From NCBI GenBank assembly GCA_963922205.1, contig CAWUHX010000166.1:738019-802018 (forward strand): a DNA stretch of 64,000 bases, in the 5' to 3' direction. The notes under the pieces were generated by a model, which was not told the origin of the DNA, searched no databases, and worked only from the letters and a program-made list of their open reading frames with translations. Each line of letters opens with the position of its first letter. Within the stretch, counting starts at the first letter, position 1. A program made the position numbers and the translations under genes. The DNA comes from Romanomermis culicivorax (taxonomy: Eukaryota > Nematoda > Enoplea > Mermithida > Mermithidae). Below are positions 4,652-44,045 of this stretch, one piece after another.

Positions 4652-5834
4652 TTTTTCAGCATCTATTTAAGGTCTATAGTACACCAACACCACTACACCA
4701 AGTGGGTTAAGTTTCGCAGAAAAATAAATTAGTGCAGGCTTGTGTTAGGTGAGCCACTGATATACAAACATTGAGCTGGTAGGCAACTAACGCCTTACCA
4801 AATCTTACCCTTGCTACCTCTATATGTTGGGGAGGGTAGACCTGATCCAATTGTCCACCACTTGATTGGACACCAATCTCTGACCAGCTGCTTGAGCGAC
4901 CAACTACCCTCCATTTGTGGCCCTCAGTATTTACAATTTTTATAGCACTCGAGATTGATAATTTTTTATAATATTGATATCGAAAAAGTGATATAATTTG
5001 ATTTGAAAATAATATATTTTTTGTTGAAATTTGATGATAAAAATTGAACGGGCTGAACCCAAGGTTCTAGGTTCCCCTTGAAAGGTCTAACTCTCGCCGA
5101 TATCAGGTTTATTTCCATGTTTGAAAATTCCTTGATTGGCTATGAGTTTCTGATTCTCCGTACTCCCGTTTTTTGTTCCCTCTAAGTCCTAATCTCATCT
5201 GCCCTTTGGGGCGCCGAGTTGGTCTTCCAGTGACTTCTGGGCATTTCCTGCGGTTTCCAAAAATGTTTGATAAAATTAAGTTCGAAACTTACTGTCAATA
5301 AAGAAAAACCGGTTGTCCTGCCAGTGTTGGGGCCTTCCGTACTCTACATGGCGCCTCTGTGTGCAACCACTCATGCATCGGAGCTTTTCCGCAGTTCTGT
5401 GGGCCTTTTCCCATTTTTGTTTTCCAAAATTTCTTTCATTTGAATAATAAAATTTAAAATTTTCTAAATTTTCTGAACGCTGAAAAAGTATAATCTAGCA
5501 ATTCTGGTAATTTCCATTTTATGTTCGAATTGGGGAACGTTTTACTTCTTCCTTCCGATGGGAGTATAGAATTCAGATAAGCGGGGCAGCTATAATATGT
5601 TTTTGAAAAAAAAAAAAACTTGAAAATTATTATTTTTTGAAAATAATCCAAAATATTTTGGGTTGTCACTTTGTCTAAAATTCCCAAGAATTTTTCCCAA
5701 AGTCTGATAAATATGAAAAAAATTACAAAATTGTTATGAATAATATAGAAACGTGATAAATATTACAATATATTATCAAATAAATTTTAAAATGTACTTA
5801 CAGGTGCAAGAAAACATAAAAATAAAAAAAAATC
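4652..5834 (-). other. Spacer between gag-pol and the second ORF in the degenerate retrotransposon
   Basis: This stretch aligns with 36915..38145 of the intact copy. It holds the small ORF relic described separately, an acceptor-like sequence (ACTTTTTCAG read on the minus strand, near 5480) shared with the intact copy, and a conserved tail near 4700-4960. The conservation of the spacer in both copies argues that it is part of the element, not later inserted DNA. Confidence 0.7.
5293..5414 (-). pseudogene. Relic of the small conserved ORF/exon upstream of the second ORF
   Basis: Minus-strand ATG at 5414 followed by MGKG...APMHEW and, after a one-base insertion, RHVEYGRPQHWQDNR and FFFID, then a GTAAGT donor (5292-5287). 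The intact copy has the matching ORF at 37341..37461. Most codon differences between the two copies in the aligned core are at third positions. The extra base breaks the frame in this copy, consistent with its general decay. Confidence 0.7.
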
Positions 5835-8800: not shown

Positions 8801-11800
8801 TGGCCTCAAATTGATAGCAGTCCTATGATACTGTTTAGCCACAGGTGCTGCATGGCCTGTATTCATGTTACACATCAAATAGGGTGTAGTAGTTAGTGGA
8901 TCATTAGGCAAGCTAAATACGTCTCTATATTTGGAGAGACACTTTAAAGCTTGTTCTAACTGACCAGAAGGTATATTGGATTTAGCTAGCATACTGTACA
9001 AAGCTTCCCTGATCTCTTTCTCATCGCTTTGAGTTGAATCAGGTTTAGCTTGGACTACACAAGTTTGCAGCTTCTCCTCTTCTTCAACTATCTTTCCCTC
9101 TAGTTTATTTCGATTAGAGGAATCACAATACACAGAATTATTATAGCCAATTATTTGATTTTGTTTCAAATGGCATCCTGATCCTGTGTTATCAGATACC
9201 ATCACTACAAAATCACTTTTAGTACCATCTACTATAGTACTATCTATGTGGAACCTTTTTTTGTTTTCTTTGGACTCTACTATGATCCTATTCAGGCAAT
9301 TTTTGCCTACCTTGTCCCAAAGTTTTGCTTTTACAAGTATCTCAATACCACTATGCAAGTAGATTTGATTCAAACTTACTACTGGCACGGAAACCTTCAA
9401 GAAGCAGATCTTTGGTTGGCATTGATTGGCAGCACAAGTTGTGAATTCTGCGGCACTTGTGGTCATGACCTCTCTGTAGTTCATTTGAGACTGCTCTGGT
9501 GTCACATATCTCCATTCTTGCCAGTTGTTGAGGGTCATCGTCCTATTTCTGAAATCTATTATGGCTCCTACCTGAGGATGAGCCAAAAAATCTGTCACCA
9601 CAATGACATTTTCACCTGCTTCAGGGATAACAATTGCTTTTACGGGGAACTGTCCACACAGGGTATCCATCCTAAATTGGATGTACCCATGGGCTTGGAC
9701 TGTCTTACCATTGGCTACAGTAACATTTAATATCCTCAGATATTCAGTGTAGTCTGGACCCAAAGTTTCTTTCAGAAACTTAGCTGACATTACAGTACAC
9801 TGAGCTCCTGTGTCAATGAGAGCCAATGTTTTAGGACCTCCTATAACAACGTCAATATGGAATGGGGCTGTTCTGGGATACGTATCCAGCAAATGTTGTT
9901 CCTGAGGGCTAGCTGGTGTGTGTCTCTTCACTACTTGTACTGCTGGTACTACAGTTTGTGGTGCAATAGCATTCATTTGGAAAATACTGCCCAATACCAC
10001 ATTAGGGCAACTGACTCTCTGATCTACTTCGCCCAAAGGATTCATTTGTGATTGCCTTGCAACCATTACACTAGAATAATCCTTCTGGGGCTGCTGATTT
10101 GGGAATTGACCCTGTTGCAGAGTCTGAGTTGGTCCCGTAATAGCCTGAGGTGGCTGAGGTGACTGCAGTGCAGCTTGCTATTAGTATTGCTGCATTTGTT
10201 GATATTGTTTTTGCAGTTCTTTCTGCTTTTTGAATTCCAGAAATTCGTTGTAATCAGAATTCTGTTGAAAATTTTCATGGTTATCCTGATAACCGGAGTA
10301 ACCAACATTATAGGCACATCTGCCTCTGCTATTAAAATTAGCATTTGGGTAACCTTCTCTACCTCTGTAATTACCTCTAGCAAAACTGTTGAAGCCTCCC
10401 CTATTGAAGCTAGGGAAGCTGGCTCTGCCTCCGCTCCTGCATTCGGACAAAACTCCCAATGTCCTGCAGTCTGCAGTATTATGTGTTATGTTCTTGTGGA
10501 ACTCACACCATGGCTTTGTCAGATCTCGGGAGACTTGACCTCCCTGGCTTGTCCCGGATATGGCCACATCAGACCCATTTTCCATTTGCCTATTATCAAC
10601 TTTCTGCTGAAGCTAATCGGATCTTTCGACCAGTTGTACCATCTCCTTAGAAATCTTTAATAGAAGGGACTCTTTCTTACCTTTTTCAGTCTGAGCCCTA
10701 GGGGCTTCCCGAACTAGAATCTCCTCTATTTCAGGTGAGTCACTTCTTGGCCTTTGGGTCTGGGCCAGTATGTGATTACCTAAAGTTTGATATGGTTGCC
10801 AGAACCTTTGTGTCTGACCCTGTTGAAATCCTTCTGACTGATTTCTAGCAACTACCCCAATTTCAGGATCATGCCCACTCTGATTGGCTACCTCATTGAT
10901 AACAAAGGGATCCTGCTGTGTACCCTTTGGTCCATGTCTTTGAAAGGCATTTCTATATCTTCCTTTAATATCATGAACTTCTACTGCCAAGTCATACCAA
11001 GTTCTGAAGGTATGCTTGGAATTTTTCAGTTCAGACTGAAATGTGGGATCACTCTTATACACAAAGGTGTCAGTAATCAGCCTCTGTTTTGACTGATACT
11101 CTAAATCACCCTTAACAAGTTCCACCCATATACTGACTCTTTTTAAGGAGTCAACGTCCTGTTCATTAAGCCTTTGTTGGATCTCAAATAATTCCCTGGT
11201 TAACATTTCCAGGTTACACTCTGGTGCAAAGACATTTATTATGGCTCTCCTGGCGTCCCTATAGGTCATGTTGTCACTTGCTACAGCCTTCAGTCTGCCC
11301 TTAGAAAGCCTCAGCAGTGCTTCATACTTAGCTGATTCGGGTGTATCCCTACGGAATTCCCCTTCTAGTGCTGTCAAGAAGCTAAGCACTTGCTGATTTA
11401 CCATACCTTCTTCCAAAGTTTGAGTAACACACCTTTAACGATATTCCTGATGACAATCTCTTGTGCCAAATTATTTGTTGGCATTTCTGTCTGATCATAC
11501 GATGCTGTTAAAACTGGATCCATATCAGAGTTTAGAGATTGCAACATGACTCGATTTGGATCTCGTTGCAGTGGTACACCTCCTTGATTTGATGGTAGAT
11601 TGTCTCTATCAAATCTATAATCCCTATATGGGAAACATGCCAGTTGATCTGGCCTAAGGGTATTTGGATCAACTACATTTCCTCTACCATCATAGACCAC
11701 TCTTTTCAAAGTTGGATGCTGCTGAGCTATCTGATTTTGATTTCTAAGGTCTGCCGATTGCTCAGCTCCCTCGAATCCAAGATCTCTAGCTGGACATTTC

Positions 11801-12538
11801 AAACTTTTGGGCCCAAAATTGAGTCTCTGCCCTTCATCAACTTCAGGCCTATTACTAGGCCCTCTGCGCCTGCATATGTATCAGCTAAGAGATGGTTGTC
11901 TCTTTCTGCACCCCTATTACATGGTCTAACCTGTCTATCTGGCTCCTGCCGGCGACTGTCGGCTTCCCTCTTATTGTCTTCAATGGCAGCATTCGCGATT
12001 ATGTCGAATAAGACTTCGAGGGTCCCTTTCAATGCGTGTAACTGTGTTGCCAATTCTTGGTTGGACATTTCGGGAGCTCTTTCCAGTTGGCTGAATCGCT
12101 CTTGATCTTGTGGAATCCTCTCTAATTGTTGTTCGATTTCGGGATCCACTTCATCCAAATTTGGTCAAATTTCCGGTGTAACAACATCCCTTTTGGGTCC
12201 TGCTAATTCGACCCTTGGTCGACCAATTCGACTTCTTTTAATATTTCACGGCAGCCGTCCATCCACGTCTGGTTTGGATTCGCCGGGCCTGCCTCTTGCG
12301 GTTCGAGGGCAATTGCTGGTGGGTGGTCTATTGGTACACCCGCATCCTGGGGCGTAAACTGCATTGCTTGTTGTTGCAATGGCTGGACCCTCACCGGAGT
12401 CTGCTCTGGAATCACTGGGTCCAGGGCAGCATGCTGTTGCTGCTCTTTGCCTCCCAAATTTAGAAGATTCCCAGCACTCGCCACTCTGGGTGGTGATGTG
12501 TGTAAAGTATTACCTCTCAGTATCCTTTCATTTGGCAT
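5835..12538 (-). pseudogene. Broken gag-pol of the Ty3/gypsy-type retrotransposon
   Basis: Minus-strand ORF pieces (12203..12538, 11799..12158, 11398..11802, 10613..11416, 10181..10585, 8555..10066, 7878..8480, 7401..7853, 6738..7115, 6091..6624) follow the intact Gag-Pol in order. Visible pieces are the Gag zinc-knuckle region (CEFHKNITH near 10490), an aspartic protease with [10 protein letters not shown] (near 9800), reverse transcriptase with YIDDIIVFS (near 8380), an RNase H relic in which the TDASG motif reads RDTSR, and integrase pieces (VSVDIVG and [12 protein letters not shown]). Frameshifts and stops occur between pieces, and part of integrase, including the zinc-binding start, is lost or altered. 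It cannot make a full polyprotein. Confidence 0.92.
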
Positions 12539-12615
12539 TTTGAATCCTGCTAACTTTCTATAGAAGCCTGGAGGATAGTCCTTTCTCCTAGTTTGACTAC
12601 CAAGTTCTGTTATGA

Positions 12616-12632
12616 GGAGTCAAAAGCCACCA
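12616..12632 (-). other. Primer binding site of the degenerate retrotransposon
   Basis: Read on the minus strand, two bases after the LTR end, TGGTGGCTTTTGACTCC differs by one base from the site at 29984 in the intact copy. It starts with TGG, as expected for pairing with the CCA end of a tRNA. I cannot assign the tRNA from memory. Confidence 0.6.
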
Positions 12633-12634
12633 CT

Positions 12635-13701
12635 TGTTGTGCAGGTCTCTTCTTAGGGTGTAAGAAAAGATAGAGGCTTCTGGTCTGAACTGACCTGTTA
12701 GAGCTAATTCCTTGGCTAAGCCTCGGAGATTGCGCAACAGTCCAGTTCCCCAGACCTGACCACAACAAAGATAAACTTCTTTGAAATATGGGGCCTCACA
12801 CGGACCCTCGAAGTCTCCTAGAAGAGACAAGGATTCCCCTCAGGGATAAACTTACTTTCTGGATCCCCGGGTGGGTCTTCCAGAGCTTGCAGTCAGCAAG
12901 CTGGCGCCTGGGCCTCTGGCCCTTCACTCCAATTGCTCGATTGAATCTAAATAACAAATGAATAAATATAGCAATAATTCGGACGAATAATAAAAAGAAA
13001 GTGGAATGACCACTAATAAAATTATGCAAATATACACTACCAGGCGAAACTAACCGTCCATGCCGGTCGCGTCCAGGACGCGTCCGGAATGCGTCCAGAA
13101 CGCGTCTCGGACGCACCCAGGATGCGAAAAGCACACTATACCGACAATAAAATTGACAGGCCATGTGCTTGTGTCACACAAAGCCAAAGAATTTTGCTGA
13201 GGCTTCCTTCTTACCTCCCTATAGAAAGCACACATTATTTACCAGATATAAACGAAAGGTCAATTGTTGTCATACTGTAGGTCAAAACAAAGTGCATATC
13301 CACTACACATTAAGAAAGAACTATGATTGACAGTCATTGCATGAATGTCAATTACTAAGAAAGATGAAAGTTTTCTTTGTGCTGCCGAAAAAGACGCGTT
13401 CCGGACGCGACCTGGACGCGACCCGGACGCGTCCAGAACGCGTTCCGGACGCGAATTTTTGAGGGTTAGTTTCGCCTGGTAGTGTAAGACAAAATTGCTG
13501 GGAATATTTTTACTGGACGCCAGCTATTATATCAAGAATATAATAAAAAACGATTATAGTGAATGAATGAATTTCACTATCACTTTTTGGTCTTTCTATG
13601 GCCCTCCATTTCTATGCAAATGTTTGCGCTGCTGGTCGTCCGATTCGTCGATTTGCATGGCAATTTCTTGATGCAACTTGCCATCAACAGGGTGCCCAAC
13701 A
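12635..13701 (-). repeat. 5' LTR of the degenerate retrotransposon, split by a MITE
   Basis: Minus-strand sequence begins TGTTGGGCACCCTGTTGATG at 13701 and ends GCACAACA at 12635, the same termini as the LTRs at 29364 and 43426. Without the 450-bp MITE (13035..13484) and its 2-bp duplication the LTR would be about 615 bp, the same as its relatives (618 and 620 bp). The partner 3' LTR lies beyond position 1. Confidence 0.92.
13035..13484. mobile_element. 450-bp MITE with 21-bp TIRs and TA target duplication
   Basis: CACTACCAGGCGAAACTAAC starts at 13035, and its reverse complement ends at 13484. TA flanks both ends (13033-13034 and 13485-13486), and the surrounding LTR sequence rejoins cleanly when the element is removed. 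The TA duplication fits a Tc1/mariner-type mover. Just inside both TIRs are GC-rich arrays of imperfect GGACGCGTCC-like palindromic units, while the middle is AT-rich. No transposase ORF is visible, so it is non-autonomous. Confidence 0.9.
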
Positions 13702-14157
13702 CTTGAAGCTCTGCAACACATGAAAAGAATCTCAAGAGCAAATCACTAATCTAAATCAGCACTAACGATTTTTTTCTACTCATACAGCAAATCTTGGAAA
13801 AATTTTTGTTATGAGGCTTATTTGGAAAGAAAAGGCTACTTGGTATTTTTTATCTACCAAAATTTGAAGATGGGAATATTGTAATTATCAAAAGCATTGC
13901 ACAGCTAACATAAGCAGCAAATTGTTCACAGAAAAATAATACATTTTCTTATAGCCGTTGGTAATTTCTTTTTAGTCGGACTGTCATACATACCTATAAG
14001 AATCGATACAAATTAATTTGAAGTAACAACCTTTTGTTTTCTTTACATTTAGGGATTCACTGTATTTGCTGACACAATCGATTGACATCTATCTTAATAC
14101 AAAGTAAAAAATAGTTAGTCAAGTTGATATGTCATAAAGTTACCTGGTCCACTAACA

Positions 14158-29363: not shown

Positions 29364-29981
29364 TGTTGGGCACCCTGTTGATGCCAATTTCGTGTGGGGA
29401 AATCGACATGCAAATCGACGACAGGGACGACCAGCGGCGCAGACATTTGCATAGAATGGAGCGCCACCAAAAGACCAAAAAGATAGTGAAAAATCATTGT
29501 TCACTATATTTCGATTTTTATTATATTTTCGTTACTTTGCTGGCGTCCCTAAATAAAGTTCCCAGCAATTCGTCTTTATTTTGCATATATTTCTTCTGTG
29601 GTCAATCCACATTTTTTATTATTGCGTCGGAAATATTGATTTACATATTTGTTGTTTATTATTTAGGATTTGTTATCGAACGTCGAAGGCGGAGGGCCAG
29701 AGGCCCAGGCGCCGGCTTACATCAAGTAAGTTCTGGGAAACCCCTTTCGGGTTATACCCAAGTAAGTTTATCCCTGAGGGGATTCCTTGTCTCATCTAGG
29801 AGACTGCGGAGGACCTTGGTAAGGCCCCCGTATTTAGAACAAAGTTTATCTTTGTTGTGGTAGGTCTGGGGACAAACGGACTGTTGCACAGATCACCGAG
29901 GCTTAGCCAAGGTGTCAGTTCTAACAGGTCAGTTCAGACCCAATCTTTTCTTACGCCTCTTAAGGAAAGACCTGCACAACA
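29364..29981 (+). repeat. 5' LTR, 618 bp
   Basis: Starts TGTTGGGCACC and ends GCACAACA (TG...CA). It contains an AATAAA signal at 29552 and two GTAAGT donor-like sites at 29726 and 29762. It aligns end to end with 43426..44045. Confidence 0.95.
29552..29557 (+). promoter_or_regulatory. AATAAA polyadenylation signal in the 5' LTR
   Basis: AATAAA in the context CCTAAATAAAGTTCC, present at the same LTR position at 43615 in the 3' LTR, where it would act. Confidence 0.55.
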
Positions 29982-29983
29982 AG

Positions 29984-30000
29984 TGGTGGCTTTTAACTCC
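29984..30000 (+). other. Primer binding site
   Basis: TGGTGGCTTTTAACTCC starts two bases after the LTR. The TGG start fits pairing to a tRNA CCA end. One base differs in the degenerate copy. The tRNA is not identified. Confidence 0.7.
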
Positions 30001-30077
30001 TTACCACGGAACTTCGTAGTCAGACTAGGAGAAAAGAAAATCCTCCAGGTTTCTACAGAAGGTTAGCAGGATTTAAA

Positions 30078-33000
30078 ATGCCTAACGAAAGGATACCGAG
30101 AGGTAATACTTTACGCAGATCACCACCCAGAGTGGCGAGTGCTGGGAATCTAGTCAATTTGGGAGACGGAGATCAGCAACGGCATGCTGCTCCGGACCCA
30201 GTGATCCCAGATCAAACTCCCGCGAGGGTTCAACCATTGCAACAAAATGCAATGCATTTTACGCCTCAAGATGCAGGCGTACCAATTGACCGACCGCCAG
30301 CGATTGCCATCGATCCGCAGGAGGCAGGCCCGGCGAATCCGAACCCAGACGCCGATGGACCGCCGCAGCCAAATTTCAAAAGGTCACCGCCGCCAAAGGT
30401 CGAATTAGCAGGACCAAAGAGGGACGTCGTTACGCCCGAAATTCGACCAAATTTCGAAGAAAGGGACCCCGAAATCGATCAAAGATTAGAGAGGATTCCC
30501 CAGGAACAAGAGCGATTCCAACCGCAGGAAAGAGCTCCCGAGATGTCCAATCAGGAGTTGGCGACGCAGCTACGCGAGTTGAAAGGGACCGTCGAAGCCT
30601 TGTTCGACATAATCGCAAATGCCGCCACAGAGGACAACAAAAGGGAAGCCGACAGGCGCCGACAGGAGCCGGATAGACAGGTTAGACCATGTAATAGGGG
30701 TGCAGAAAGAGACAACCGTCTCGCCGCTGAAATAAATGCAGGCGCAGGGCCTAGTAATAGGCCTGATATTGATGAAGGGCAAAGGCTTAATTTTGAGCCC
30801 AAAAGTTGGAGAGGTCCAGCTAGAGATCTTCGATTCGAAGGAGCTGAGCAATCGGCAGACTTCAGGAATCAAAGTCAGATAGCTCCGCAGCATCCAACTT
30901 TAACTAGAGTGGTCTATGATGGTAGAGGAAATATAGTTGATCCAAATACCCTTAGACCAGATCAATTGGCATGTTTCCCATACAGGGATTACAGGTTTGA
31001 CAAAGACAATATGCCATCATATCAAGGAGGTGTACCACCTCAACGAGATCCAAATAGGGTTATGCTGCAATCCTTGAACTCTGATCTTGATCCAGTATTA
31101 ACAGCAGCTTATGATCAGAGGGAAGTGCCATCAAATAATTTGGCACAAGAGATTGTAGTCAGGAATATCGTTAAAGGTGTGTTACCCAAACTTTTAGATG
31201 AGGGTATGGTAAATCAGCAGGTGCTTAGCTTTTTAACAGCACTTGAAGGGGAATTCCGTAGGGATACACCCGAATCAGCTAAGTATGAAGCACTGCTGAG
31301 GCTTTCTAAAGGTAGACCGAAGGCTGTTGCAGGAGACAACATGACCTATAGGGAGGCCAGGAGAGCCATTATTAATGTCTTTGCACCTGAGTGCAACCTG
31401 GAAATGTTAACCAGGGAGTTGTTTGAGATCCAACAAAGACCCAATGAACAGGCCGTAGAGTTTTTAAAACGGGTCAGTATATTAGTGGAACTAGTTAAAG
31501 GTGATTTAGACTATCAGTCTAAACAGAGACTGATTATTGATACCTTTATTTACAAGAGTGATCCTACATTTCAGTCTGAACTGAAAAATTCAAAGCATAC
31601 CTTTAGAACCTGGTATGATCTTGCAGTAGAGGTTCATGATATTGAACGTAGGTACAAAAATGCCTTCCAGAGATATGGACCCAAGGGTACACAACAGGAT
31701 CCTATAGTAATTAATGAAGTAGGTATGCCTAGTGGGCATGATCCTGAAATTGCCGTAGTTGCTAGGAACCAGTCAGAAGGATATCAACAAGGCCAGAGGC
31801 AAAGGTTTCGGCAACCATATCAAACCGTAGGTAATCAGGTACAGGCCCAAACCCAAAGGTCAAGGAGTGATTCTCCTGAGATAGAGGAGATTCCAGTTCG
31901 GGAAGCCCCTAGGGCTCAGACCGAAAAAGGTAAGAAAGAATCTCTTCTATTGAAAATCTCAAAAGAGATGGTACAACTGGTCGAAAGGTTCGACCAACTC
32001 CAGCAAAAGGTTGATAACAGGCAAATGGAAAATCGGTCTGATGTGGCCATACCTAGTACCAGTCAGGGAGGTCAAGTTTCCCGAGATCCGACTAAGCCAT
32101 GGTGTGAGTTCCACAAGAACATAACACATAATACTGCAGACTGCAGGACATTGAGAGTATTGTCCGAGCGCAGGAGCAGAGGTAGAGCCAGCTTCCCTAC
32201 CTATAATAGGGGAGGCTTCAACACTTTTGCTAGAGGTAACTACAGAGGTAGAGGAGGTTACCCAAATGCCAACTTTAATAGCAGAGGTAGAGGTGCTTAT
32301 AATGTAGGCTATTCAGGTTATCAGGATAGCCACGAGAGTTACCAACAGAATTCAGATTATAATGAATTTCTGGAGTTTAAAAAGCAGAAGGAGCTGCAGA
32401 AGCAGTTCCAACAGATGCAGCAGTACCAACAGCAAGCTGCATTACAGCATCCTCAGCCTCCACAGGCTATTATGGGTCCGACTCAGACTCTTCAACAAGG
32501 TCAATTCACAAATCAGCCACCTCAGAAGGATTATTCGAGTGTTATGGTTGCAAGGCAATCTCAAATGAGTCCTTTAGGTGAAGTAAACCAGAGAGTGAGT
32601 TGCCCAAATGTTGTATTAGGTAGTATTGTGCAAATGAATGCAATTGCACCACAACCTGTAGTACCATCAGTACAAGTAATAAGGAGAGGCACACCAGCTA
32701 GTCCCCAGGAACAACATTTGCTGGATACGTACCCCAGAACAGCCCCATTCCACATTGAGGTTGTTATAGGAGGTCGTAAGACAATGGCTTTAATTGACAC
32801 AGGAGCTCAGTGCACTGTCATGTCGGCTAAGTTTTTGAAAGAAACTTTGGGCCCCGATTACACTGAATATCCCAGGATATTAAATGTTACTGTAGCCAAC
32901 GGTAAGACAGTCCAAGCCCATGGGTATATCCAATTTAGGATGGATACGTTGTGTGGACAGTTCCCCGTAAAAGCAATTGTAATTCCTGAAGCAGGTGAAA

Positions 33001-36000
33001 ATGTCATTGTAGGAACAGACTTTTTGGCTCATCCTCAGGTAGGAGCCATAATAGATTTCAGGAATAGGACGATGACGCTCAACAACCGTCAACAACGGAT
33101 ATACGTGACGCCCGACCAGCCCCAATCCAATTGTGGAGAGGTCATGACCACGAGCGCCGCGGAATCCATGATGAGCGCCGCCGACCAATACCAGCCAAAG
33201 ATTTGCCTGCTAAAGGTTTCGGTGCCAGTGGTGAGTGTGAATCCCATATACTTACCTAGTGGTACTGATATACTTCTGAGAGCAAAGCTTTGGGATAAGG
33301 TAGGCGAAAATCGCCTCAATGGAATCATAATAGAGTCTGAAGACAATGAAGAAAGGTTCCACATTGATAGTACCATAGTAGATGGTACAAAAGATGATTT
33401 TGTTGTTATGGTATCCAACAACACAGGATCAGGATGCCATCTGAAAAGAAATCAAATAATTGGCCATACTAATTCAGTGTTGTGTGATACTGATAACCAA
33501 GATCAACTTAAGGGGAAGATAGTTGAGGATTTGGAGAAGCTGCAAACTTGTGCAGTCCAGGCTAGACCTGATTCGACTCAAGTGGATGAGAAAGAGTTCA
33601 AGGAAGCCTTGTACAATATGCTAGCTAAATCCAACATACCATCAGAACAATTGGAACAAGCTTTACGGTGTCTCGCAAAATATAGAGACGTGTTCAGCTT
33701 GCCCAGTGATCCTCCAACTACTAGACCCTATTTGACCTGTAAAATAAATACAGGGGATGCAGCACCTGTGGCAAAAAGGTACCACAGGACTGCCATTAAT
33801 TTACGGCCGCATGTTCGTGAGCATGTGCAAGATATGCTCAAGAAGGGTGTAATTGAGCCATCAAAGTCGCCTTGGGCAGCTCCGTTATTTCTAGTAAGTA
33901 AAAAGGATGGTACCAAGCGACCAGTAGTGGACTTTAGGGGTATAAATGATGTTACCAAGGATGATAAGTATCCCATTCCTAGAATGGATGACTATCTAGA
34001 CTGTTTAGGTAAAGCCAAATTTTATACTACCCTAGATCTCAAATCAGGATATTGGCAAGTGCCAATGGATGAAGAAAGCAAGGAAAAAACTGCTTTCATA
34101 TGCCAAGAAGGGCTTTATCAATTTAAAGTCATGCCCTTTGGCCTAAAAAATGCGCCAGCCGAGTTCCAGCGTATGATGGAAAGAGTTTTGCATCCATATG
34201 TTTGGAAAATCTGTCTAGTCTATATAGACGATATAATTGTGTTCTCAAATACGTTTGAGGAACACTTAGTTAATTTAGAGCTAGTCCTGCAAGCTCTAAG
34301 AAAGGCTCACTTGACCTTGAAGCCAGAGAAGTGTGAATTCCTGCCTGAGAGAGTTCATTTTTTAGGACATATCTTAAATTCGGATGGAGTTTCCCCAGAT
34401 CCGAAAAAGGTCAAAGCTATAAATGATTTCCCATTCCCAGAATCTAAACGTAAACTGCAAAGGTTTCTAGGTATGTTGCAGTGGTGTAAAAAGTTCATAC
34501 CGGGTTTGGCTAAGCACGCCGAACCGTTGTACAAACTAACTGGGAAGAACTGTGTTTGGGAAGTCACGGAGGTTCACCATCAGGCTTTTAGGAGCCTGAA
34601 AGAAGCACTATTGTCAGTGCCATTCCTTAGGTATCCGGTTTTGGACGGGTCTGCGGACTTTGTCCTTCAGACAGATGCCAGCGGAACGGCACTAGGAGCA
34701 GTCCTTTACCAGGAGACCAAGTCAGACTGCTGGGTAATTGCTTATAATAGCAGAATTTTAAAGGCGGATGAGAAAAAGTGGTCAGCCACGGAAAGGGAGT
34801 GCTTGGCAATTGTGTATGGCTTGAAGTTATACAAGCACTACTTAGTAGGTCATAAAGTGATCATAAGAACTGATCACAAACCTTTATTATCTATGAAGGT
34901 TAACGCCATGACCAATGGTAAGTTGAAGAGATGGTACTCATTCATCTCTCAGTTCAACCATAAACTAGAGTATGTGCCTGGAAAACAAAATGCCATGGCA
35001 GACTTTTTGTCCAGGATGGATGAACCAGACGATCAAGCGGAGAAAATACCGCCAAAATGGGAACACATGTTCTCAGAGGGTAAACGAGAGTCTGAAAATC
35101 TGAAAGATCTTGAGGCACAGCTAATTGAGAAAAAACATCTCAATTTGGTAAAGAGATTCAGAATTCTGACAGATCGGAATCCTGAAGACGGTACTCCGTT
35201 ACATCTGGAGCCAAAAGGTAAGAAGAATCAGAGGACTGATATAAGTCCGAGATTCACCCAGATTTATCCAGAAGATTCTGAGGGTGATCCAGAATCAAAC
35301 TCGCCTGCAGACTTGGTAAATGCCGTAACTACAAGGAGCATGGCGAAAGAAGCGGACAAGAATAATCAGGCTCAGACCGAGCCTGACGGCAATCAGGTCA
35401 AAGATAAGGTAAGTAGGGGAAACCAGGACAAAGGTAAGGAAAAAAGAGTAACCTGGTTATACCCAGAAAAGGAACAAGAGTTTACTTTGGCAGACCCAAA
35501 GGAGAATGAATTACCAAAAGGGCTAATTAGAGATGATCTCATGGCCCTCTTGCAGAGAAAAGATCAGGTATTACAGCCATACTTTGATAGATTGGGTCCA
35601 AATGGGACAACCAAGTATCATAGTGGATTTTATATCCAAAATGAAGTGTTATACCGCGAAGCCGGACAGGGGTCGGACGATCAAGTGGTCGTCCCATCCT
35701 GCCTTAGGGACAATACTTTGCACCAGTACCACGGTGCCGTAATGATGACTCATCAGGGGTTCAAAAGGACCCTTGCTATGATCAAAAAACGGTTCTGGTG
35801 GCCTGGAATTGAAAAGGATGTCAGGCACTGGATCAAGTTTTGTCCAGTTTGTCAAATGGCTAATCAGGGAAACACAGAAATTCCACCACTGATACCAATT
35901 ATTCCACAAGGTCCTTTTGACATTGTATCAGTGGATATCGTGGGTATTTCTCCACTCAGTGAGAAGAGACCGTATGTCATAGTCTTTCAAGACTATTTTA

Positions 36001-36914
36001 CAAAGTGGGTTGAAGCTGAACTGATCCCGGATCAGTCAGCTAGCACCGTTGTAGACACCTTTCTACAAGCTATTGTATTTAGGCACGGGACTCCACGGAG
36101 ACTACTCAGCGATAGAGGAGGTTGTTTTACCTCAGATCTGATGAAGGAAATCTGCAAGTTGTTAGAGTGTCAAAAAATATTTACAACAGCCTACCATCCA
36201 CAAGGTAATGGCATGGTAGAGAGATTTAATCAGACACTGATTAAACAGCTCAGAAAGGTGGCCATAGAGGAAAAAGATAACTGGCCAAGATACTTGAGAG
36301 CTGTGGTGTTTGCATATAATGCCACACCGCATGCAGCCACGGGGCAATCCCCATTTTCGTTGCTTAGAGGTCACGAGGCAACCTTCGGGTTAAACTTATC
36401 GAAAGCATACGATATTGTAATGCCGGACAGCAATGCTGAGGCATACAAATTTGTGTTGACCAATCATTTAGTCAACCTTTACGAGGATATTGCCAAAAAT
36501 ATCCAGAGTGCTGCCGAAAAATCGAAGAAATACTTCGATAAAAAGTCCAAACAAAATGGATTTAAAGAAAAGGACTGGGTTCTGCTCAAAGTAGATAAGC
36601 AGAAAAAACTAGGACTACCATGGTCCGGTCCGTTCATAGTTACGGACATTTCGCGAGAAGCAGAGAACGTTGTCACCATTGTACATTGGGACAACCCGCT
36701 AAATCGCCAAACTGTTTCAATCAGCAGGTTGAAACATTTTCGTTACGAGACCACTAGGGTCTTGCCGCGAATAGCGCGAGCCAATCAGGACGCGCCACGT
36801 GACGAAAACACGTCACTTTCCAATATGGCACAAACAGTTACGACTGGAGCGCCGATTCAAATGAAATCATTTGAAAATTCGCTCAAGGCGAATCTATGCG
36901 CGATCTCGCGCTGA
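30078..36914 (+). CDS. Gag-Pol polyprotein of the Ty3/gypsy-type retrotransposon, 2278 aa, intact
   Basis: One open frame from ATG 30078 to TGA 36914. Gag: Pro/Gln-rich N-terminus, helical capsid-like region (about 330-560), a CX2HX4HX4C zinc knuckle ([15 protein letters not shown], near 675), then RGG/Gln-rich RNA-binding sequence. Pol: aspartic protease [12 protein letters not shown] (D907), reverse transcriptase with [11 protein letters not shown] and YIDD (Y1382-D1385), RNase [13 protein letters not shown] (D1533), integrase with an H..H..CPVC zinc region (about 1880-1930) and the D1953-D2012-E2048 triad with 35 residues between the last two. No frameshift separates Gag and Pol, so Pol level must be set otherwise, for example by proteolysis. 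All catalytic residues seen are present. Together with the LTRs it could drive retrotransposition; this is inferred. Confidence 0.97.
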
Positions 36915-37340
36915 TTTTTTTTTCTATTTTGTGTACATATCTCGTGCGTGTAAGTACTAATTTTAATTAAAATTGTATTAATTTGTAATATTTATCGCGT
37001 TTATGTAATATTTGTGTTAATTTTGTAAATTTTTCATATTTATCTCAGACTTTGGGAAAAATTCTTCGGAATTTTAGACCAAAGTGACAACCCAAAACAT
37101 TTTTGATATTTTTCCAAAAAATTTAACTTTCAAAATTTTTCATTTTTTCTAAAATCAAATTATAGCTGCCCCGCTTATCTGAATTCTAAACTTCCATCGG
37201 AAGGAAGAAGTAAAATATTCCCCGAACCGCGATAAAAAGGAAATTAGCAGAACTGCTAAATTAAACTTTTTCAGCGTTCAAAATTTTAAATAAATTTATC
37301 AATTTATTATTCGAAAACAAAAATTTCGAAAAGAAAAGAG

Positions 37341-37461
37341 ATGGGAAAGGGCGCGCGGAACCGCCAACAAGCTCCGACGCGCGAGTGGTCGCACACAGAG
37401 CGCCACGTTGAATACGGCAGGGCCCAGCACCGCCAAGACAACCGTTTTTTCTTTATCGACG
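37341..37461 (+). CDS. Small conserved ORF, probable first coding exon of the second ORF
   Basis: ATG at 37341 starts MGKGARNRQQAPTREW; the exon continues through RHVEYGRAQHRQDNR and FFFID to a GTAAGT donor at 37462. The degenerate copy keeps the ATG, the protein sequence and the donor. In a 27-codon core I counted 8 synonymous and 4 amino-acid-changing codon differences, as expected for coding sequence under constraint. The exon ends in phase 1, and the acceptor at 38144-38145 needs exactly one preceding base to continue into the second ORF. In this copy the frame also reads through to 37565 (74 aa), so a separate small protein is the alternative. No known domain. Confidence 0.6.
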
Positions 37462-38145
37462 GTAAGTTTCGAACTTATTTTTATCAAACATTCTTGGAAA
37501 CCGCAGGTAATGCCCAGAAGTCACTGGAAGACCAGCTCGGCGCCCCAAAGGGCAGACGAGGTTAGAACTTAGAGGGAACGAAAAATGGGAGTACTGAGAA
37601 ACGGAAGCTCGAAGCCAAGCAGGGAATTTCCAATTTGGAAATATACCTGATACCACCGAGAGCTATACGATTCAAGGGAAACCTAGAACCTTGGGTTCAG
37701 CCCGTTTTAAAGTTTTATCATTCAAAAATTTATCAAAAATTATTTATTTTCAAATCAAATCAAATCATATCACTTTTTCGATATAAAATTCATTAAAAAT
37801 TATCAATTTCGAGCGCTATAAAAATTGTAAATACAGCGCCATAAATGGAGCGTAGTTGGTCGCTCAAGCAGCTGGTCAGAGATTGGTGTCCGATCAAGTG
37901 GTGGACAATCGGATCAGGTCTACCCTCCCCAACATATAGAGGTAGCAAGGGTAAGATTTGGTAAGGTGTTAGTTGCCTACCAGCTCAATGTTTGTATATC
38001 AGTGGCTCACCTAACAACCTGCACTAAACTTAATTTTCTGCGAAACTTAACCCGCTTGGTGTTGTGGTGCTGGTGTAGTATAGACCCGAAAATGCGCTGA
38101 AAAAAGGGGAATAAAACACTAAAATTAATAGTACTTTATGTTTAG
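37462..38145 (+). other. Predicted intron upstream of the second ORF
   Basis: GTAAGT donor at 37462 and TATGTTTAG acceptor ending at 38145. Both are conserved in the degenerate copy and are phase-compatible. A smaller alternative intron (37462..37506, ending ACCGCAG) is also possible. Prediction only; RNA evidence is needed. Confidence 0.5.
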
Positions 38146-41100
38146 ATTATAACGTCAAACGGGCCGTACGAATCCACGAACTGGATCAGTGGTTCAAAGC
38201 CACATTTGGGTACTGGCCGGCCAATCCCAAGGAACCTCGAATGGTAGACATCGGGAAGGTCAGCCAGGTACTCCATTTTATCCGAGAAGTGTCAATCTTC
38301 AGAGGACAACCAGTTTGTGGTTTCGACGTTGAAAAAGTCAACCAGGATAAGGTCGCCGCCTTGTTCAAAACAAGGGAGGTCGACAATCCAATGGGAAAAC
38401 AGTTTGCCCGATATATCAGCTTCGCGCTAACGAACGGTCAAACTTACGTTATTGATACAACGTCGATGATGATCAAAGAGTGGACCAGCCTCCACGACTT
38501 CTTGAACTCCGACATGCTGTTCGCCGGATATGCCGTACTGGAAGATCTGGTGAGTATCTATAACGTTTGTGGCGCAGGGCGAGATAATAAGGATAGGGAC
38601 AAAACTGTCCCCTTACGGGAATTTCTAAGGAAGACCAAAGGTCGATACTTTGACTTAGACCGTTTCGCCCTCACCATGGTAGGAGTGAACCTGGAGAAAA
38701 AATGCTTTCAGACAGGTATATGTCCCGAAACTTTTCGGTTAAAGGGACTGTTCACGGAATTTTATTTGGTAGACGTGGGCCCCTACCAATATGACTTTTC
38801 GTTAAAAGCGAACCGTGATCGGTTTGCCAAAAGGGGTATATTGCCGGAAGAGCTCAGATACGCCGCTCTAGACGCATACTACTCCTTATTGGTCATGTTT
38901 GCCGCCATTCACTATGGCATGGCCGATCAACTGCTTATGCAAATGCAGATTTTCGACCATGACAAGGTGGATCCCAAACAGATCAACACCATTGCCCTCC
39001 ATTTTTATCAACAATATCTAATGATTCCGGGCAATGTGAATCGAGAAATGGGGCTAGGTACCCCAGTTATGGAAACCGATCAGGTTCAACCAAACATGGT
39101 CTATCACATGATGAAGTGTGAGATGTATAACCATTGGGCGGTACAGATGCAGGGAAATAACACAGGTTATTATACCGCGCCCACGGAATGTAATCCAGTC
39201 CGTCCGCAGGGAGTTCAGTTGCCAAGTGGTTTTTACCCACTACTTCCAAGAGATAACAAACCATTGAAGGACGACGGATACACCACAGATAGCGATCCCG
39301 ACGAAATCCAGGACGTCCAGATACCAGACTGGGTAAATATTTCAAAGGATATCCTGGAAAATCTCAAGTCAGGCGGAGCCTACTGGGATTTAGACGGGAA
39401 AATTTCTTTAACGTTGTACGAAAACGCCAAGCTATACTGGCAACAAGCCGGGAAGCCCGATACCATTCCACAAGAGGTGTTTTCCTCTAATAACCACTAC
39501 CCAGTGGGTATCGAGGGCCATAGACAGGCCTATAAGACCAATTTTTACACGCCAAACTTGGCGAAAATTTCAGGTATGCTGGATGAGCGAAACTTCCCAG
39601 AGTTAGAGGTCATCTGCAAATTTATGCCATTGGCTTATCATTTGGCATGGCCTCATTCCAGAGCGGAGTGCGACTATGAAACTAGCGCTCTGCTAAACTA
39701 TAACTTTCTAAATAGTTATACTAAAGAAGGCCAGGAAATGATAAAGAAAATGTCCTGGAAGTCAGGCGACCGCCTGGCTTACTATTTAGAATTAGCAGCG
39801 ACGCTACCGCCGTCGGAACCCCGCTTTCCATCTAAAAAAGGGGTATACGCATGGCAGAATCGGTTCGGTTTTGTCCCGCTACGATTTCGAGAAGCTGAGG
39901 AGATTCTACAAATTGGCGACGACAAATCGTTATTGAAGGACGGAGCCTACAAGGTAAATCCTTATTTCTATGTAACTTTTTACTATGTAGGCTTCGAGAC
40001 TTTAACGCCGGGACTGCGGTATCCCATGACGGAAGACGCATCGCCAACCGACTACCCGATTACCTACGCACCGAGAAATCCGCTCGAGCTCAGACCGGAG
40101 TTTGTCACTAAAAGCTTCCGGGAGAGAACAATCGCTTCCGAAATGCCCGGGTATACACTTACATATACCCCAGCCGGTGAGTTAATTTCTAAGGTACCGC
40201 TAAATCGTCCCTCAACTTCCCAAACGGCGCAAGCCGGAGGGACGGGACAGGTCAAAGCGCAGCCGCAGGCGCTAGCGCCAGTGGCCAAAGCTACACCAGC
40301 TTTGGACACTGCTGCTATGCAGGCAGCTGCAGTAGTTGTCGTGGTGCCGCCGCCAATCCAACCAGCGGTGGCACAGCCGACTCAAGTACCTCAAGTACAA
40401 CAACCGGCCGAGCCTGAGCCAGAGGTTGTCACCATAATGCAATCAGTACCTCCAGCACCAGCTGTTTTGCCAGCTAAAGTAAAACAGCTCTTGCCGAAGA
40501 TACGAAATTCAGACTCTGAGTCCAGTTCAGAGGAGGATGTAGAAGAAGAAGAAGAGGGTGAAATCCTCGAATCTGAGGGCCAGACATCAGAGAATAAGGA
40601 TGCGATGGAGGCCAAAACTCAGAAAGAGGCTCTTGAGGAGGAGAAAATCCAGACTCAAATTGACGAAGCAGTCACCAAAATGTCAGGGATCGATGTCAGA
40701 CTGGAGAAGATGCAGGAAGCATCCCAGGAGATACCTGTGAAGGCCAAAGATCCTAAGGATCATGACCGACAAGCGAAGCAAGAGGCCCTACAGGCCAAAA
40801 TTCAAGAACAAAGGAGGCTGACGCAGCAGGAATTCCTGCGTCAGAGGGCAATCCAGAGAAAGCTGAAGGAGCAGGCACTAGCCGACGATAGCTCAGATTC
40901 AGCCATTGCAGCGACAGAGCTGATGCGGAGGGGAAGAATTGCCGAGGAAGGTATTCCTGGAATTTATTCCCCAGACAAAGTTCAGCAGATGTTAGCTGAA
41001 GGGATGTCGGAAAAATTTATCCGACACCTAGCCAAAGAAAAGGTAAGGCGCAGGAAGAGGATAAGTAAGGCCAAGCGACGCAGACTTGCAGCTCAGGGAC

Positions 41101-42674
41101 AGCAGCAACAAGGAGCGGCCGCCACCGGATCCGAAAACGACGCCTACGATACGGCCGAAGAAACGACGACCCCACAATACTCGACGAGCCAAAAGTCGAG
41201 ATCGGAGACTTCAAAGAGTCAGACAAGAACGGAGACTTCAAAAAGTCAGACGAGAACGGAGACCTCCATAGGCCAGACAAAATCGGATAGGACAACAGGG
41301 TCCACTGCGACAACATCGTACACTCAGACGCGAACGGTATCGAAAACCGGCGGAGAGGTTAGTACTTATTCTGGCAAAAGTAAATCCGTGCCCTCCAGCT
41401 ATACCGCAAGAAGTAGCAAACCTGCGGGAAGCGTATTGGTGAAGCCCGATCTTGAATCGGAGGAGAAATTGATCAAGAAGGTCAAGCTGAATGTGGTAGC
41501 TACTAGACCCGAAAGGGAACCACAGCAGTTTGTCACTCCTGGTCAATTGGCCGAAACTCTGATTGATTATTGGGAGTGGCAAAGGGAACAAAGGCGCTTA
41601 ATTGGGCCGATCTCATTTGAAAATCCAGAGGTCGCCAATTATTTCGCCTTTGATCGGCAAGAACGGCCGATAATTTACAGAATGGTCAATGATGCCATGG
41701 CCGAAATTCACGAAAATTACCGCCAGCAATTCGAAATGCAAGGCGGATTTATGTTCGACGGAGAGCGCATCCCTGAGGAGATCTGGGAATGGATAATTTT
41801 AATTCTCATCCCCAGATGGCTTCAGGACTACGATGCCTCAGACGTCTTTACGGCCATTAGGTATGTGACCCTAATGATTTTTCTTCAGTTGGACTTCGCT
41901 CCGATCACGCCAACGGCAATTGGTAGGTGGTATGCCCAGGCGTGTTCGTTTGCGAACAGACAACTAGTCGTTGAGGCCCAGGGAAACCGCGTAGACGATG
42001 TCTACATTGCAGCCTTTAATCAGTATATTTTTATGGGCTCGCAAAGGTTAAACCAGATGGGTGTTAAGAGGAAGGCACCAGGCGATGACAGGTCGCAAGC
42101 TGATAAATTTCAGCGAACGGCTGCCAAGAGCCCAAGTAAGTTCAAGGTGCCTAGACTCCCTCCGGCTAAGAAACAACCACCGATGATACAACAATCATCG
42201 GCTACGACCAGCCAGAGGTCATACAGTGAAGCTGCTAGCACCTCTTACAAAAGTCCGCTTTCTCGATCAAAATCAATATCATCAAAATCTCTTAATTCAA
42301 CTTATCGGACACAAAAACCTCAGCGCAGCAGCTCCACTAGCAGTGGTCAAAGGCAGCAGGGGAGAGACGATATGTTCTCAAACCCGGCCCCGTACAGGGC
42401 TAGACCGGGGTATGACCAAGGTCAACCCAGGGGAGGCTTCAGAGGGCGCCCTCAGCGACCTTACAGAGGCCGAGGAACCTGGCAACACCAAGGTCAAGAC
42501 CCGGATGCTGAATTTCATAATCCGAATTTTATGCCGCTAGGTAGACGCGGCGGAAGCCAACAAGGCCAAAATAGAGGCCAGGATGGAGGTCAAACCCGAG
42601 GCCAACCAGGTCAGAGGGGGTACTATCAAGGTAGACCTCGAGGAGGCTACCGAGGCGGCGGGCAGCAGCAGTAA
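38146..42674 (+). CDS. Second large ORF: DEDDy 3'-5' exonuclease domain plus coiled-coil and RGG-box protein
   Basis: The frame from ATG 38241 codes for 1477 aa, but conserved sequence ([19 protein letters not shown]) starts at 38146, so the start is probably in the upstream exon at 37341. Numbered from 38241, the N-terminal domain has the RNase D/WRN-exo/EXD-type motifs: CGFDVEKV (D29, E31), [10 protein letters not shown] (D102) and [10 protein letters not shown] (Y207, D211), with strand YVIDTT before motif II. Then come a helical middle region (about 400-640), a Pro/Ala/Gln-rich linker, an acidic run (about 757-785), a charged coiled coil (about 790-900), a basic patch [14 protein letters not shown] (about 935-949), Ser/Thr repeats of SQTRTET, a Trp-rich helical domain (about 1098-1270) and an RGG box to the end. 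No signal peptide or membrane segment, so it is not an envelope protein. Likely role, inferred: RNA binding and 3' trimming. Confidence 0.82.
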
Positions 42675-43425: not shown

Positions 43426-44045
43426 TGTTGGGCACCCTGTTGATGCCAATTTCGTGTGGGGAAATCGACATGCAAATCGACGAACAGGGACGACCAGCGG
43501 CGCAGACATTTGCATAGAATGGAGCGCCACCAAAAGACCAAAAAAGATAGTGAAAATCATTGTTCACTATATTTCGATTTTTATTATATTTTCGTTACTT
43601 TGCTGGCGTCCCTAAATAAAGTTCCCAGCAATTCGTCTTTACTTTGCATATATTTCTACTGTGGTCAATCCACATTTTTTATTATTGCATCGGAAATATT
43701 GATTTACATATTTGTTATTTATTGTTTAGGATTTATTACCGAACGTCGAAGGCGGAGGGCCAAAGGCCCAGGCGCCAGCTTACATCAAGTAAGTTTTGGG
43801 AAACCCCTTCCGGGTTATACCCAAGTAAGTTTATCCCTGAGGGGATTCCTTGTCTCATCTAGGAGACTGCGGAGGACCTTGGTAAGGCCCCCGTATTTAG
43901 AGTTAAGTTTATCTTTGTTGTTGTAGGTCTGGGGAACCGGACTGTTGCACTATCACCGAGGCTTAGCCAAGGGATCAGTTCTAACAGGTCAGTTCAGACC
44001 AGAGTTATCTTTTCTTACGCCTCTTAAGGAAAGACCTGCACAACA
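43426..44045 (+). repeat. 3' LTR, 620 bp
   Basis: TGTTGGGCACC...GCACAACA, about 96% identical to 29364..29981, with a few single-base indels. AATAAA is at 43615-43620. Confidence 0.95.

What the first reader, a model, noticed from the sequence alone, without database searches (positions are those of the whole stretch)
38146..42674. LTR retrotransposon encoding a DEDDy exonuclease/RGG-box accessory protein
A second ORF larger than 4.4 kb follows pol. Its start carries all five DEDDy motif residues in order (D29, E31, D102, Y207, D211), and its end is an RGG box. Motifs I and III are also kept in the diverged, broken copy at 1..4651, which suggests they were under selection while the family was active. 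Most gypsy-like elements have at most an env in this place. I recall reports of exonuclease ORFs in some rotifer LTR elements, but have not checked; the coiled-coil, Trp-rich and RGG parts look new to me. Possible roles: trimming of the element's own RNA/DNA ends or interference with small-RNA silencing. The role is inference.
Basis: partly seen in the sequence, partly recalled or inferred. Interest (0 to 1): 0.87.

Follow-up and report, generated by a model that had tools for sequence, protein, structure and literature searches.

The report
Nematode retrotransposon carrying its own exonuclease
A jumping gene that looks recently active in a mosquito-parasitic nematode carries, besides its usual genes, a large extra protein that appears to start with an RNA- or DNA-trimming enzyme and end in an RNA-binding tail, a combination related to, but larger than, one described from rotifers.

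Summary
Window 29364-44045 is a 14.7-kb Ty3/gypsy-type LTR element in Romanomermis culicivorax. After gag-pol it carries a second protein. Its main exon starts exactly at 38146, a splice acceptor; two short upstream exons (37341-37461, 37507-37560) join it in frame. All five DEDDy residues are present; the broken copy keeps all five, not only motifs I and III. The genome holds at least 31 uninterrupted ORF2 copies. In the 30 I read, chosen by protein score, the five residues are invariant and dN/dS is far below 1. Three of five measurable copies have identical LTRs, so insertion was recent. This ORF itself has no significant Pfam or PDB match, and my AlphaFold models failed. The exonuclease assignment rests on motifs, a 35%-identical sister ORF2 whose best Pfam match is PF01612, and profile matches to two further exonuclease types (B, C) of the same genome with members over the PF01612 cut-off. 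The kind is known: bdelloid rotifer LTR elements carry DEDDy ORF3s (Rodriguez 2017). Apparently new: a nematode host, a giant spliced multidomain protein, several lineages, strong selection, recent activity. Best guess: an RNA 3'-end nuclease working on the element's own RNP. The role is inferred.

The parts
29364..29981 (+). 5' LTR (TG...CA)
   Evidence: 95% identical to the 3' LTR over 625 columns
29997..36914 (+). gag-pol ORF, 2305 codons: protease, RT, RNase H, integrase (Ty3/gypsy order)
   Evidence: Pfam RVT_1 4.3e-39, RT_RNaseH, Integrase_H2C2, rve, gag-asp_proteas
37341..37461 (+). ORF2 exon 1 (ATG; ends in a GT donor, phase 1)
   Evidence: ATG and donor found in 29 of 30 copies; a similar 19-residue peptide lies upstream of the sister ORF2, E 3.7e-5
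37507..37560 (+). ORF2 exon 2 (AG acceptor, GT donor, phase 1)
   Evidence: found by exact string in 28 of 30 copies; spliced frame open in 27 of these 28, L026 has a stop in exon 2
37845..37950 (+). possible alternative first exon (35 codons plus one base, donor G|GTAAG, same phase as exon 2)
   Evidence: starts with ATG in 29 of 30 copies, 5 distinct sequences among 30; no transcript evidence
37877..38040 (+). strongly constrained block inside intron 2
   Evidence: 37900-38049 is 96% identical to the diverged copy, the only 150-nt window of the element above 93%; the 12 other windows printed between 36700 and 38649 are at 73-92%; pi among 29 copies 0.0009-0.0018 over 37889-38038
38146..42674 (+). 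ORF2 exon 3, main exon (stop included)
38145..39104 (+). DEDDy 3'-5' exonuclease-like domain (P0001 residues 11-330)
   Evidence: motifs, dN/dS 0.086, profile match to types B and C
38325..38333 (+). motif I, D71-V-E73
   Evidence: invariant in 30 of 30 copies read
38544..38546 (+). motif II, D144
   Evidence: invariant in 30 of 30 copies read
38859..38873 (+). motif III, Y249-x3-D253
   Evidence: invariant in 30 of 30 copies read; aligns with YAALDA of a solved MUT-7 homologue, first PDB row but E 1.1
39105..40184 (+). conserved middle region of unknown fold (residues 331-690)
   Evidence: 34% identity to the sister ORF2, dN/dS 0.151; no Pfam match for 39144-40100
41034..41090 (+). basic, NLS-like patch (residues 974-992)
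   Evidence: 9 or more K/R in 14 residues; a similar patch in the sister ORF2. The NLS reading is inference
41535..42224 (+). conserved C-terminal domain, helical in a low-confidence model (residues 1141-1370)
   Evidence: 37% identity to the sister ORF2; pLDDT 49
42312..42671 (+). RGG-box tail (last 120 residues)
   Evidence: 4 RGG, 10 RG; the sister ORF2 has 3 and 9
43426..44045 (+). 3' LTR
1..13704 (-). diverged, broken relative of the same family; its ORF2 part is at 3-4612
   Evidence: 75.9-79.1% aa identity in ORF2 pieces, about 80-84% nt; stops; shifts of reading frame

Best explanation
The element makes an extra protein from a spliced mRNA. Its N-terminus is a DEDDy-type (RNase D/WRN/MUT-7-like) 3'-5' exonuclease. 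Its C-terminus is an RGG RNA-binding tail, with a conserved middle region, a charged linker with an NLS-like patch, and a conserved helical domain between. I think it binds the element's own RNA in its ribonucleoprotein and trims or degrades RNA 3' ends there, as a service to the element's replication. Shown: exon structure in DNA, motif residues, strong purifying selection, uninterrupted recent copies, sister family with the same layout. Inferred: splicing in vivo, catalytic activity, substrate, location and role. My belief in the parts: DEDDy fold 0.93, catalytically active 0.8, this particular role 0.4.
For: Five motif residues in canonical context, FDVE / LED / YAALD, invariant in 30 of 30 copies read, kept in the diverged copy and in a sister ORF2 that aligns along the whole length (31% in BLAST; 35% in MAFFT; residues). 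The sister's best Pfam match of 24,736 families is PF01612, E 0.0079, below the curated cut-off. Profile-profile comparison of this ORF2 type with two other exonuclease types of the genome: probability 94.8 (type B) and 97.7 (type C), scores 61.6 and 89.9; the highest among 40 column-shuffled controls each was 22.6 and 22.0. Type B members pass the PF01612 cut-off (41.7 and 51.2 bits against 23.6); so does a type C place (32.1 bits). Window copy against diverged copy: exonuclease dN/dS 0.086 (0.044-0.130), RT-RNase H 0.082 (0.059-0.121), gag 0.186. An enzyme domain constrained like RT suggests a replication function rather than an arms race. RGG tail and basic patch recur in the sister ORF2. 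Rodriguez 2017 also suggests 3'-end processing.
Against: No significant direct sequence match for this ORF2: Pfam nothing relevant, NCBIfam none, PDB best E 0.82 for the single sequence, to an unrelated protein; for the profile, a MUT-7 homologue at E 1.1 with unrelated chains at 1.2-1.3 right behind; profile comparison with RNase D no better than shuffles (19.2 against a maximum of 24.4). Types B and C do not match each other (probability 1.5), nor this ORF2 type a fourth type D (0.6), nor C RNase D (0.3). PF01612 at E up to 10 listed none of the 31 places. AlphaFold models are poor and fold searches gave nothing. In gene-model fragments D71 is D in only 6 of 13 and D253 in 3 of 6, the other three being E. 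The 30 copies were ranked by protein score, which favours conserved proteins. No transcript, protein or activity data.
Confidence: 0.4

Rival explanations
1. Silencing counter-defence: the protein destroys or shortens siRNAs (or their double-stranded precursors) that the host aims at the element. The host would use RdRP/Dicer siRNAs and DNA methylation, since its clade lacks piRNAs.
For: Clade I nematodes have RRF-3-type RdRP and no PRG-1 (PMC4323106 passages); R. culicivorax has DNMT1 and DNMT3 and the highest methylation reported in nematodes (PMC8821070 passages). Small-RNA trimmers such as MUT-7 and Nibbler are DEDDy enzymes (recalled). An invariable substrate needs no arms race (inference).
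Against: No sign of fast evolution: dN/dS 0.086 in the exonuclease domain. Bdelloid elements with DEDDy ORFs still show small-RNA coverage of every ORF type (PMC5408684).
Confidence: 0.25
2. RNA-export and RNP regulator like CERV of C. elegans Cer1: the spliced ORF2 protein binds unspliced genomic RNA and takes it out of the nucleus; the exonuclease-like domain is an RNA-binding or quality-control module.
For: Same position between pol and 3' LTR in a nematode Ty3/gypsy element, spliced mRNA (predicted here), basic NLS-like patch. CERV is required for gRNA export (PMC10309623 abstract and passages). Introns kept in genomic RNA call for such a factor. A constrained block lies inside intron 2.
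Against: CERV is 517 aa with H, M and G domains; the word exonuclease does not occur in the paper. Homology was not tested. All five catalytic residues are conserved, which RNA binding alone does not require.
Confidence: 0.15
3. Proofreading or cDNA processing: the exonuclease edits the 3' ends of growing cDNA or removes mismatches, helping a 14.7-kb element stay intact, as nidovirus ExoN does for long RNA genomes.
For: Element is long, 14,682 nt; exonuclease as constrained as RT; the DEDD superfamily includes polymerase proofreading domains (PMC5408684).
Against: Separate protein from a spliced mRNA, not fused to RT; its presence in virus-like particles is unknown; the element's mutation rate was not measured.
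Confidence: 0.1
4. Catalytically dead RNA-binding derivative (as EXD1 and Maelstrom are) or a mere passenger.
For: Some fragments have E at 253 or N/Y/V at 71; EXD1 and Maelstrom are described as inactive DEDD derivatives that keep RNA binding (PMC5408684).
Against: The five residues are invariant in 30 of 30 copies read and kept in the sister ORF2; dN/dS far below 1.
Confidence: 0.1

Closest known systems
DEDDy ORF3 of bdelloid rotifer LTR retrotransposons (Juno1/2, Vesta2/5; Rodriguez, Kenefick and Arkhipova 2017, PMC5408684, parts 1-3 of 5 read)
   Same: LTR element with an exonuclease ORF between pol and 3' LTR; ORF3s expressed from spliced messages; several lineages of one host share the ORF type.
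   Different: Rotifer, not nematode; all Juno/Vesta/TelKA carry a dUTPase (none found here); rotifer DEDDy ORFs lack coiled-coil and TM parts, and DEDD is changed to DEED there; no RGG-tailed 1500-residue protein is described in the parts I read. Their sequenced env and GDSL ORF3 variation looked neutral; here constraint is strong.
PF01612 family: RNase D, WRN exonuclease, MUT-7/EXD3, Rrp6
   Same: D-x-E, D, Y-x3-D motifs in order and context; LRYAALDA also in a solved MUT-7 homologue.
   Different: No direct match above a curated cut-off for this ORF2; an insertion of some 20-35 residues before motif III against types B and RNase D.
CERV of Cer1 (C. elegans Ty3/gypsy element, PMC10309623, abstract and passages)
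   Same: Nematode gypsy-like element; extra protein after pol, from a spliced mRNA.
   Different: 517 aa, no exonuclease mentioned; different domains described.
Terminons (bdelloid giant Penelope-like elements, PMC6431247, passages)
   Same: Carry DEDDy exonucleases among accessory ORFs.
   Different: Not LTR elements.

Membership tests
DEDDy exonuclease (PF01612 / RNase D-like) | Five residues D-x-E, D, Y-x3-D in order and in family context | tested here: met
DEDDy exonuclease (PF01612 / RNase D-like) | Match to the curated PF01612 model above its cut-off | tested here: not met
   This ORF2: no PF01612 match and none of its 31 genomic places listed. Sister ORF2: 16.5 bits against 23.6, best Pfam family. 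Types B and C have members that pass
DEDDy exonuclease (PF01612 / RNase D-like) | Profile similarity to accepted members beyond controls | tested here: met
   ORF2 type against B and C well above 40 shuffled and 1 reversed control each; directly against RNase D not above controls
DEDDy exonuclease (PF01612 / RNase D-like) | RNase H-like exonuclease fold | tested here: inconclusive
   AlphaFold pLDDT 42 for residues 11-690; Foldseek and VIA rows not credible
DEDDy exonuclease (PF01612 / RNase D-like) | Metal-dependent 3'-5' exonuclease activity | not testable with these tools
   needs purified protein
Ty3/gypsy LTR retrotransposon | LTRs with TG...CA; protease-RT-RNase H-integrase order | tested here: met
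Ty3/gypsy LTR retrotransposon | Target-site duplication | tested here: met
   4-bp duplication in 3 relatives (L003, L006, L008) of 6 looked at; none at L014 or at the window copy; L007 runs on into element-like sequence; L010 not readable (masked)
DEDDy-ORF3 LTR elements (bdelloid type) | DEDDy exonuclease ORF between pol and 3' LTR | tested here: met
   exonuclease ORF after pol also in the sister element (its LTRs were not looked for)
DEDDy-ORF3 LTR elements (bdelloid type) | Common descent of the exonuclease with the bdelloid ORFs | not tested
   bdelloid sequences were not fetched
Retroviral/errantiviral env | Membrane anchor, fusion peptide or env homology | tested here: not met
   No Pfam env match. 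Highest 19-residue hydropathy 1.54 here, 1.79 in the sister. No signal-peptide or membrane program was run
CERV-like export factor | Homology or shared H/M/G domains | not tested
   CERV sequence not held; only the paper's description was read

The most novel reading that the evidence does not exclude
A retroelement lineage has built a dedicated RNA-handling factor, exonuclease plus nuclear RNA-binding tail made from a spliced message, that edits or polices its own genomic RNA or cDNA: a retrotransposon counterpart of nidovirus ExoN or of a Rev/CERV-type regulator with nuclease activity. It would be kept for long times because it allows a 15-kb element to replicate in a host that silences by siRNA and DNA methylation instead of piRNA.
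Probability: 0.12. Interest if true: 0.88.

Novelty: new variant of a known kind. Interest (0 to 1): 0.6.

Why it matters
Exonuclease ORFs in LTR retrotransposons are described from bdelloid rotifers, with unclear selective value. Here they recur in an unrelated phylum, in several element lineages of one genome, with strong purifying selection and with copies young enough to have identical LTRs. That makes the question of what a retrotransposon does with its own 3'-5' exonuclease testable: end processing, proofreading or resistance to silencing. The host's clade is reported to lack piRNAs, which already makes one favourite answer unlikely.
Full report
WHAT IS THERE. The window lies in a 359-Mb genome (G000, contig C166). 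Every relative that the protein searches returned for its ORF2 is from the mermithid nematode Romanomermis culicivorax (24 of 24, 10 of 10), and 533 of the 606 residues of one of them (P0032) are found letter for letter, in stretches of 19 or more, in the diverged window copy. I take the host to be that species; the genome itself is unnamed. [quoted passage not shown]

THE SECOND PROTEIN. After pol comes an open stretch of 1519 codons (38115-42674). Upstream, ATG exon 37341-37461 and exon 37507-37560 join it through two GT-AG introns, both in phase 1, into one 1567-residue protein. In 30 copies read, the exon-1 ATG and donor were found in 29 and exon 2, by exact string, in 28; L025 lacks this upstream stretch and in L022 exon 2 was not found. 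In those 28 all splice sites are GT or AG, and the spliced frame is open in 27; L026 has a stop in exon 2. Gene models of this species also carry the exon-1 or exon-2 peptide joined to the main exon (P0004, P0014). A similar 19-residue peptide lies upstream of the sister ORF2 (E 3.7e-5). In the diverged copy exon 1 has a one-base insertion in the alignment, exon 2 reads TGA near its end and its donor is AT, not GT, which fits its being dead. No transcripts were available, so splicing is predicted, not shown.

THE EXONUCLEASE DOMAIN. D71-V-E73, D144 and Y249-x3-D253 stand in the usual sequence context. Direct database evidence is weak. This ORF has no significant match in Pfam, NCBIfam or PDB. 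A profile of its domain puts a MUT-7-homologue exonuclease first in PDB, aligned on LRYAALDA, but at E 1.1, with unrelated chains at 1.2-1.3. The indirect evidence is strong. PF01612 finds 119 places in the genome; by my count 95 carry the tool's over-cut-off flag, 6 of these only with neighbours in frame. None is among the 31 places listed for P0001. Seven of the 119 lie in open frames of 1232-1398 codons. Two of those seven were fetched (L112, L113). They are a sister family: the ORF2 of L112 aligns with ours along its whole length (31% in BLAST; 35% in MAFFT), with 45% identity in the exonuclease domain, 34% in the middle region, 24% in the linker (831-1140), 37% in the C-terminal domain, an RGG tail and all five residues. 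Its best Pfam match is PF01612, E 0.0079, 16.5 bits against a cut-off of 23.6. Its pol is related to the window's (49% and 73% identity in two pieces). Two further types were sampled. Type B: 608-codon ORFs and relatives; context was read at one place, L114, where an integrase-bearing ORF lies just upstream. Type C: L129 and others; context was read at L129, behind broken pieces of a related pol. Profile comparison of our type with B and C gives probabilities 94.8 and 97.7 and scores 61.6 and 89.9, against at most 22.6 and 22.0 in 40 column shuffles each. B and C do not match each other directly (1.5). Types B and C have members over the PF01612 cut-off. Against bacterial RNase D directly, the score (19.2) is inside the control range (maximum 24.4), though the motifs line up. 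Of the 20 type B, C and D pieces fetched, motif III was recognisable as Y-x3-D in 18; L134 has H in place of Y and the type-D piece L132 has S. Motif I D-x-E was seen in 13 (10 B, 2 C, 1 D), E-x-E in one, and six did not show motif I in the piece cut out. Structure prediction failed (pLDDT 49 and 42), so the fold is untested.

SELECTION AND ACTIVITY. Between the window copy and the diverged copy, dN/dS is 0.144 (0.122-0.173) for ORF2, 0.086 (0.044-0.130) for the exonuclease domain, 0.151 for the middle region, 0.183 for the linker, 0.151 for the C-terminal domain; RT-RNase H 0.082, integrase 0.104, gag 0.186. In the genome 31 places, the window's included, encode the whole 1519 residues without a stop, at 99-100% identity; only 31 of 6604 candidates were scored. 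In the 30 copies read, pairwise DNA identity is 98.0-99.9%, all five residues are present in 30 of 30, and 253 synonymous against 49 non-synonymous variants were counted. Mean dN is 0.0018 against mean dS 0.049. These copies were ranked by protein score, so the low dN is partly chosen. But under neutrality a dS of 5% would come with a similar dN, and a tail of at least 31 copies like these would not be expected. Of six copies whose 5' LTR was fetched, five could be dated: three have LTRs identical over 615, 619 and 615 nt, each with a 4-bp target-site duplication; two are 99.5% identical, one (L014) without a duplication and one (L007) running on into element-like sequence; in the sixth (L010) the 3' LTR is masked after 112 nt. 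The family has therefore moved recently, although the window copy itself, with 95% LTR identity and no duplication, looks older or recombinant.

EVIDENCE THE OTHER WAY. In 24 gene-model fragments of this species, where the site is covered, D71 is D in 6 of 13 (N 2, Y 2, V 1, S 1, gap 1), E73 is E in 13 of 13, D144 is D in 4 of 5, Y249 is Y in 6 of 7 and D253 is D in 3 of 6, the other three being E. These look like pieces of mostly broken copies stitched by gene predictors, but the shared E253 may mark a subfamily. I could not sample it, because the genome search did not complete. The first base of the D71 codon here sits in a CpG (TTCGAC) in a species with DNA methylation (PMC8821070), which may explain D71N but not Y or V.

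HOW IT MIGHT WORK. Most likely, in my view, the protein accompanies the element's RNA (RGG tail) and uses its exonuclease on RNA 3' ends in the element's RNP (0.4). Attack on siRNAs is next (0.25): the host's clade is reported to lack piRNAs and PRG-1 and to have RRF-3-type RdRP (PMC4323106 passages), and R. culicivorax has DNMT1 and DNMT3. A CERV-like role in export of unspliced RNA (0.15) is suggested by position, spliced mRNA and basic patch; CERV of Cer1 is required for gRNA export (PMC10309623, abstract and passages). Proofreading (0.1) and a dead nuclease (0.1) remain. The slow evolution of the exonuclease domain argues against an arms race with a host protein.

WHAT IS KNOWN. Rodriguez, Kenefick and Arkhipova 2017 (PMC5408684; parts 1-3 of 5 of the text read) described DEDDy ORF3s in bdelloid Juno and Vesta LTR elements, gained at least twice; ORF3s there are expressed from spliced messages; 3'-end processing was proposed and activity undemonstrated. 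Terminons carry DEDDy ORFs too (PMC6431247 passages). A 2019 paper cites DnaQ-like exonucleases as known accessory domains of LTR elements (PMC6338049 passage), and a 2017 review names the rotifer case (PMC5718144 passages). My searches listed no report of one in a nematode; the library holds only openly licensed PMC papers, and of most I saw titles and abstract starts only. So this is a new variant of a known kind, with a much larger, RGG-tailed protein.

VERDICT. Observation confirmed, with the start explained as a splice acceptor and the motif record strengthened. Exonuclease identity is very likely (0.93), activity likely (0.8), role open.

Noticed in passing
window 37877-38040 (+): Block inside intron 2 that is more conserved than the coding sequence: 96% to the diverged copy over 37900-38049, pi among 29 copies about 0.001-0.002 over 37889-38038. 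It overlaps a possible alternative first exon (37845-37950) and about 90 nt of near-invariant intron after it (28 of 30 identical). Not unusually stable as RNA.
   Followed up: partly
L114:1-3510 (G000:C74) and other PF01612 places: The genome has many dispersed PF01612 exonuclease ORFs, often in 608-610-codon or 305-codon frames; at L114 an integrase-bearing ORF lies just upstream. It looks like a reservoir of such ORFs, as bdelloid genomes are.
   Followed up: partly
L129, L131, L133, L134, L135: Third exonuclease type (C); at L129 it lies behind a broken pol whose RT piece is 65% identical to the window's. Suggests that the exonuclease has travelled with this pol lineage for long.
   Followed up: partly
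P0005, P0006, P0010: Gene models that share E instead of D at the last motif position: a possible subfamily with a changed active site.
   Followed up: no
L007 (downstream of its 3' LTR): The 3' LTR is followed by sequence that looks like the start of the element's internal region, as in a tandem with a shared LTR.
   Followed up: no
window 2719-3241 (-): The diverged copy carries about 0.5 kb inside ORF2 that does not match the window element (gap between matched pieces).
   Followed up: no
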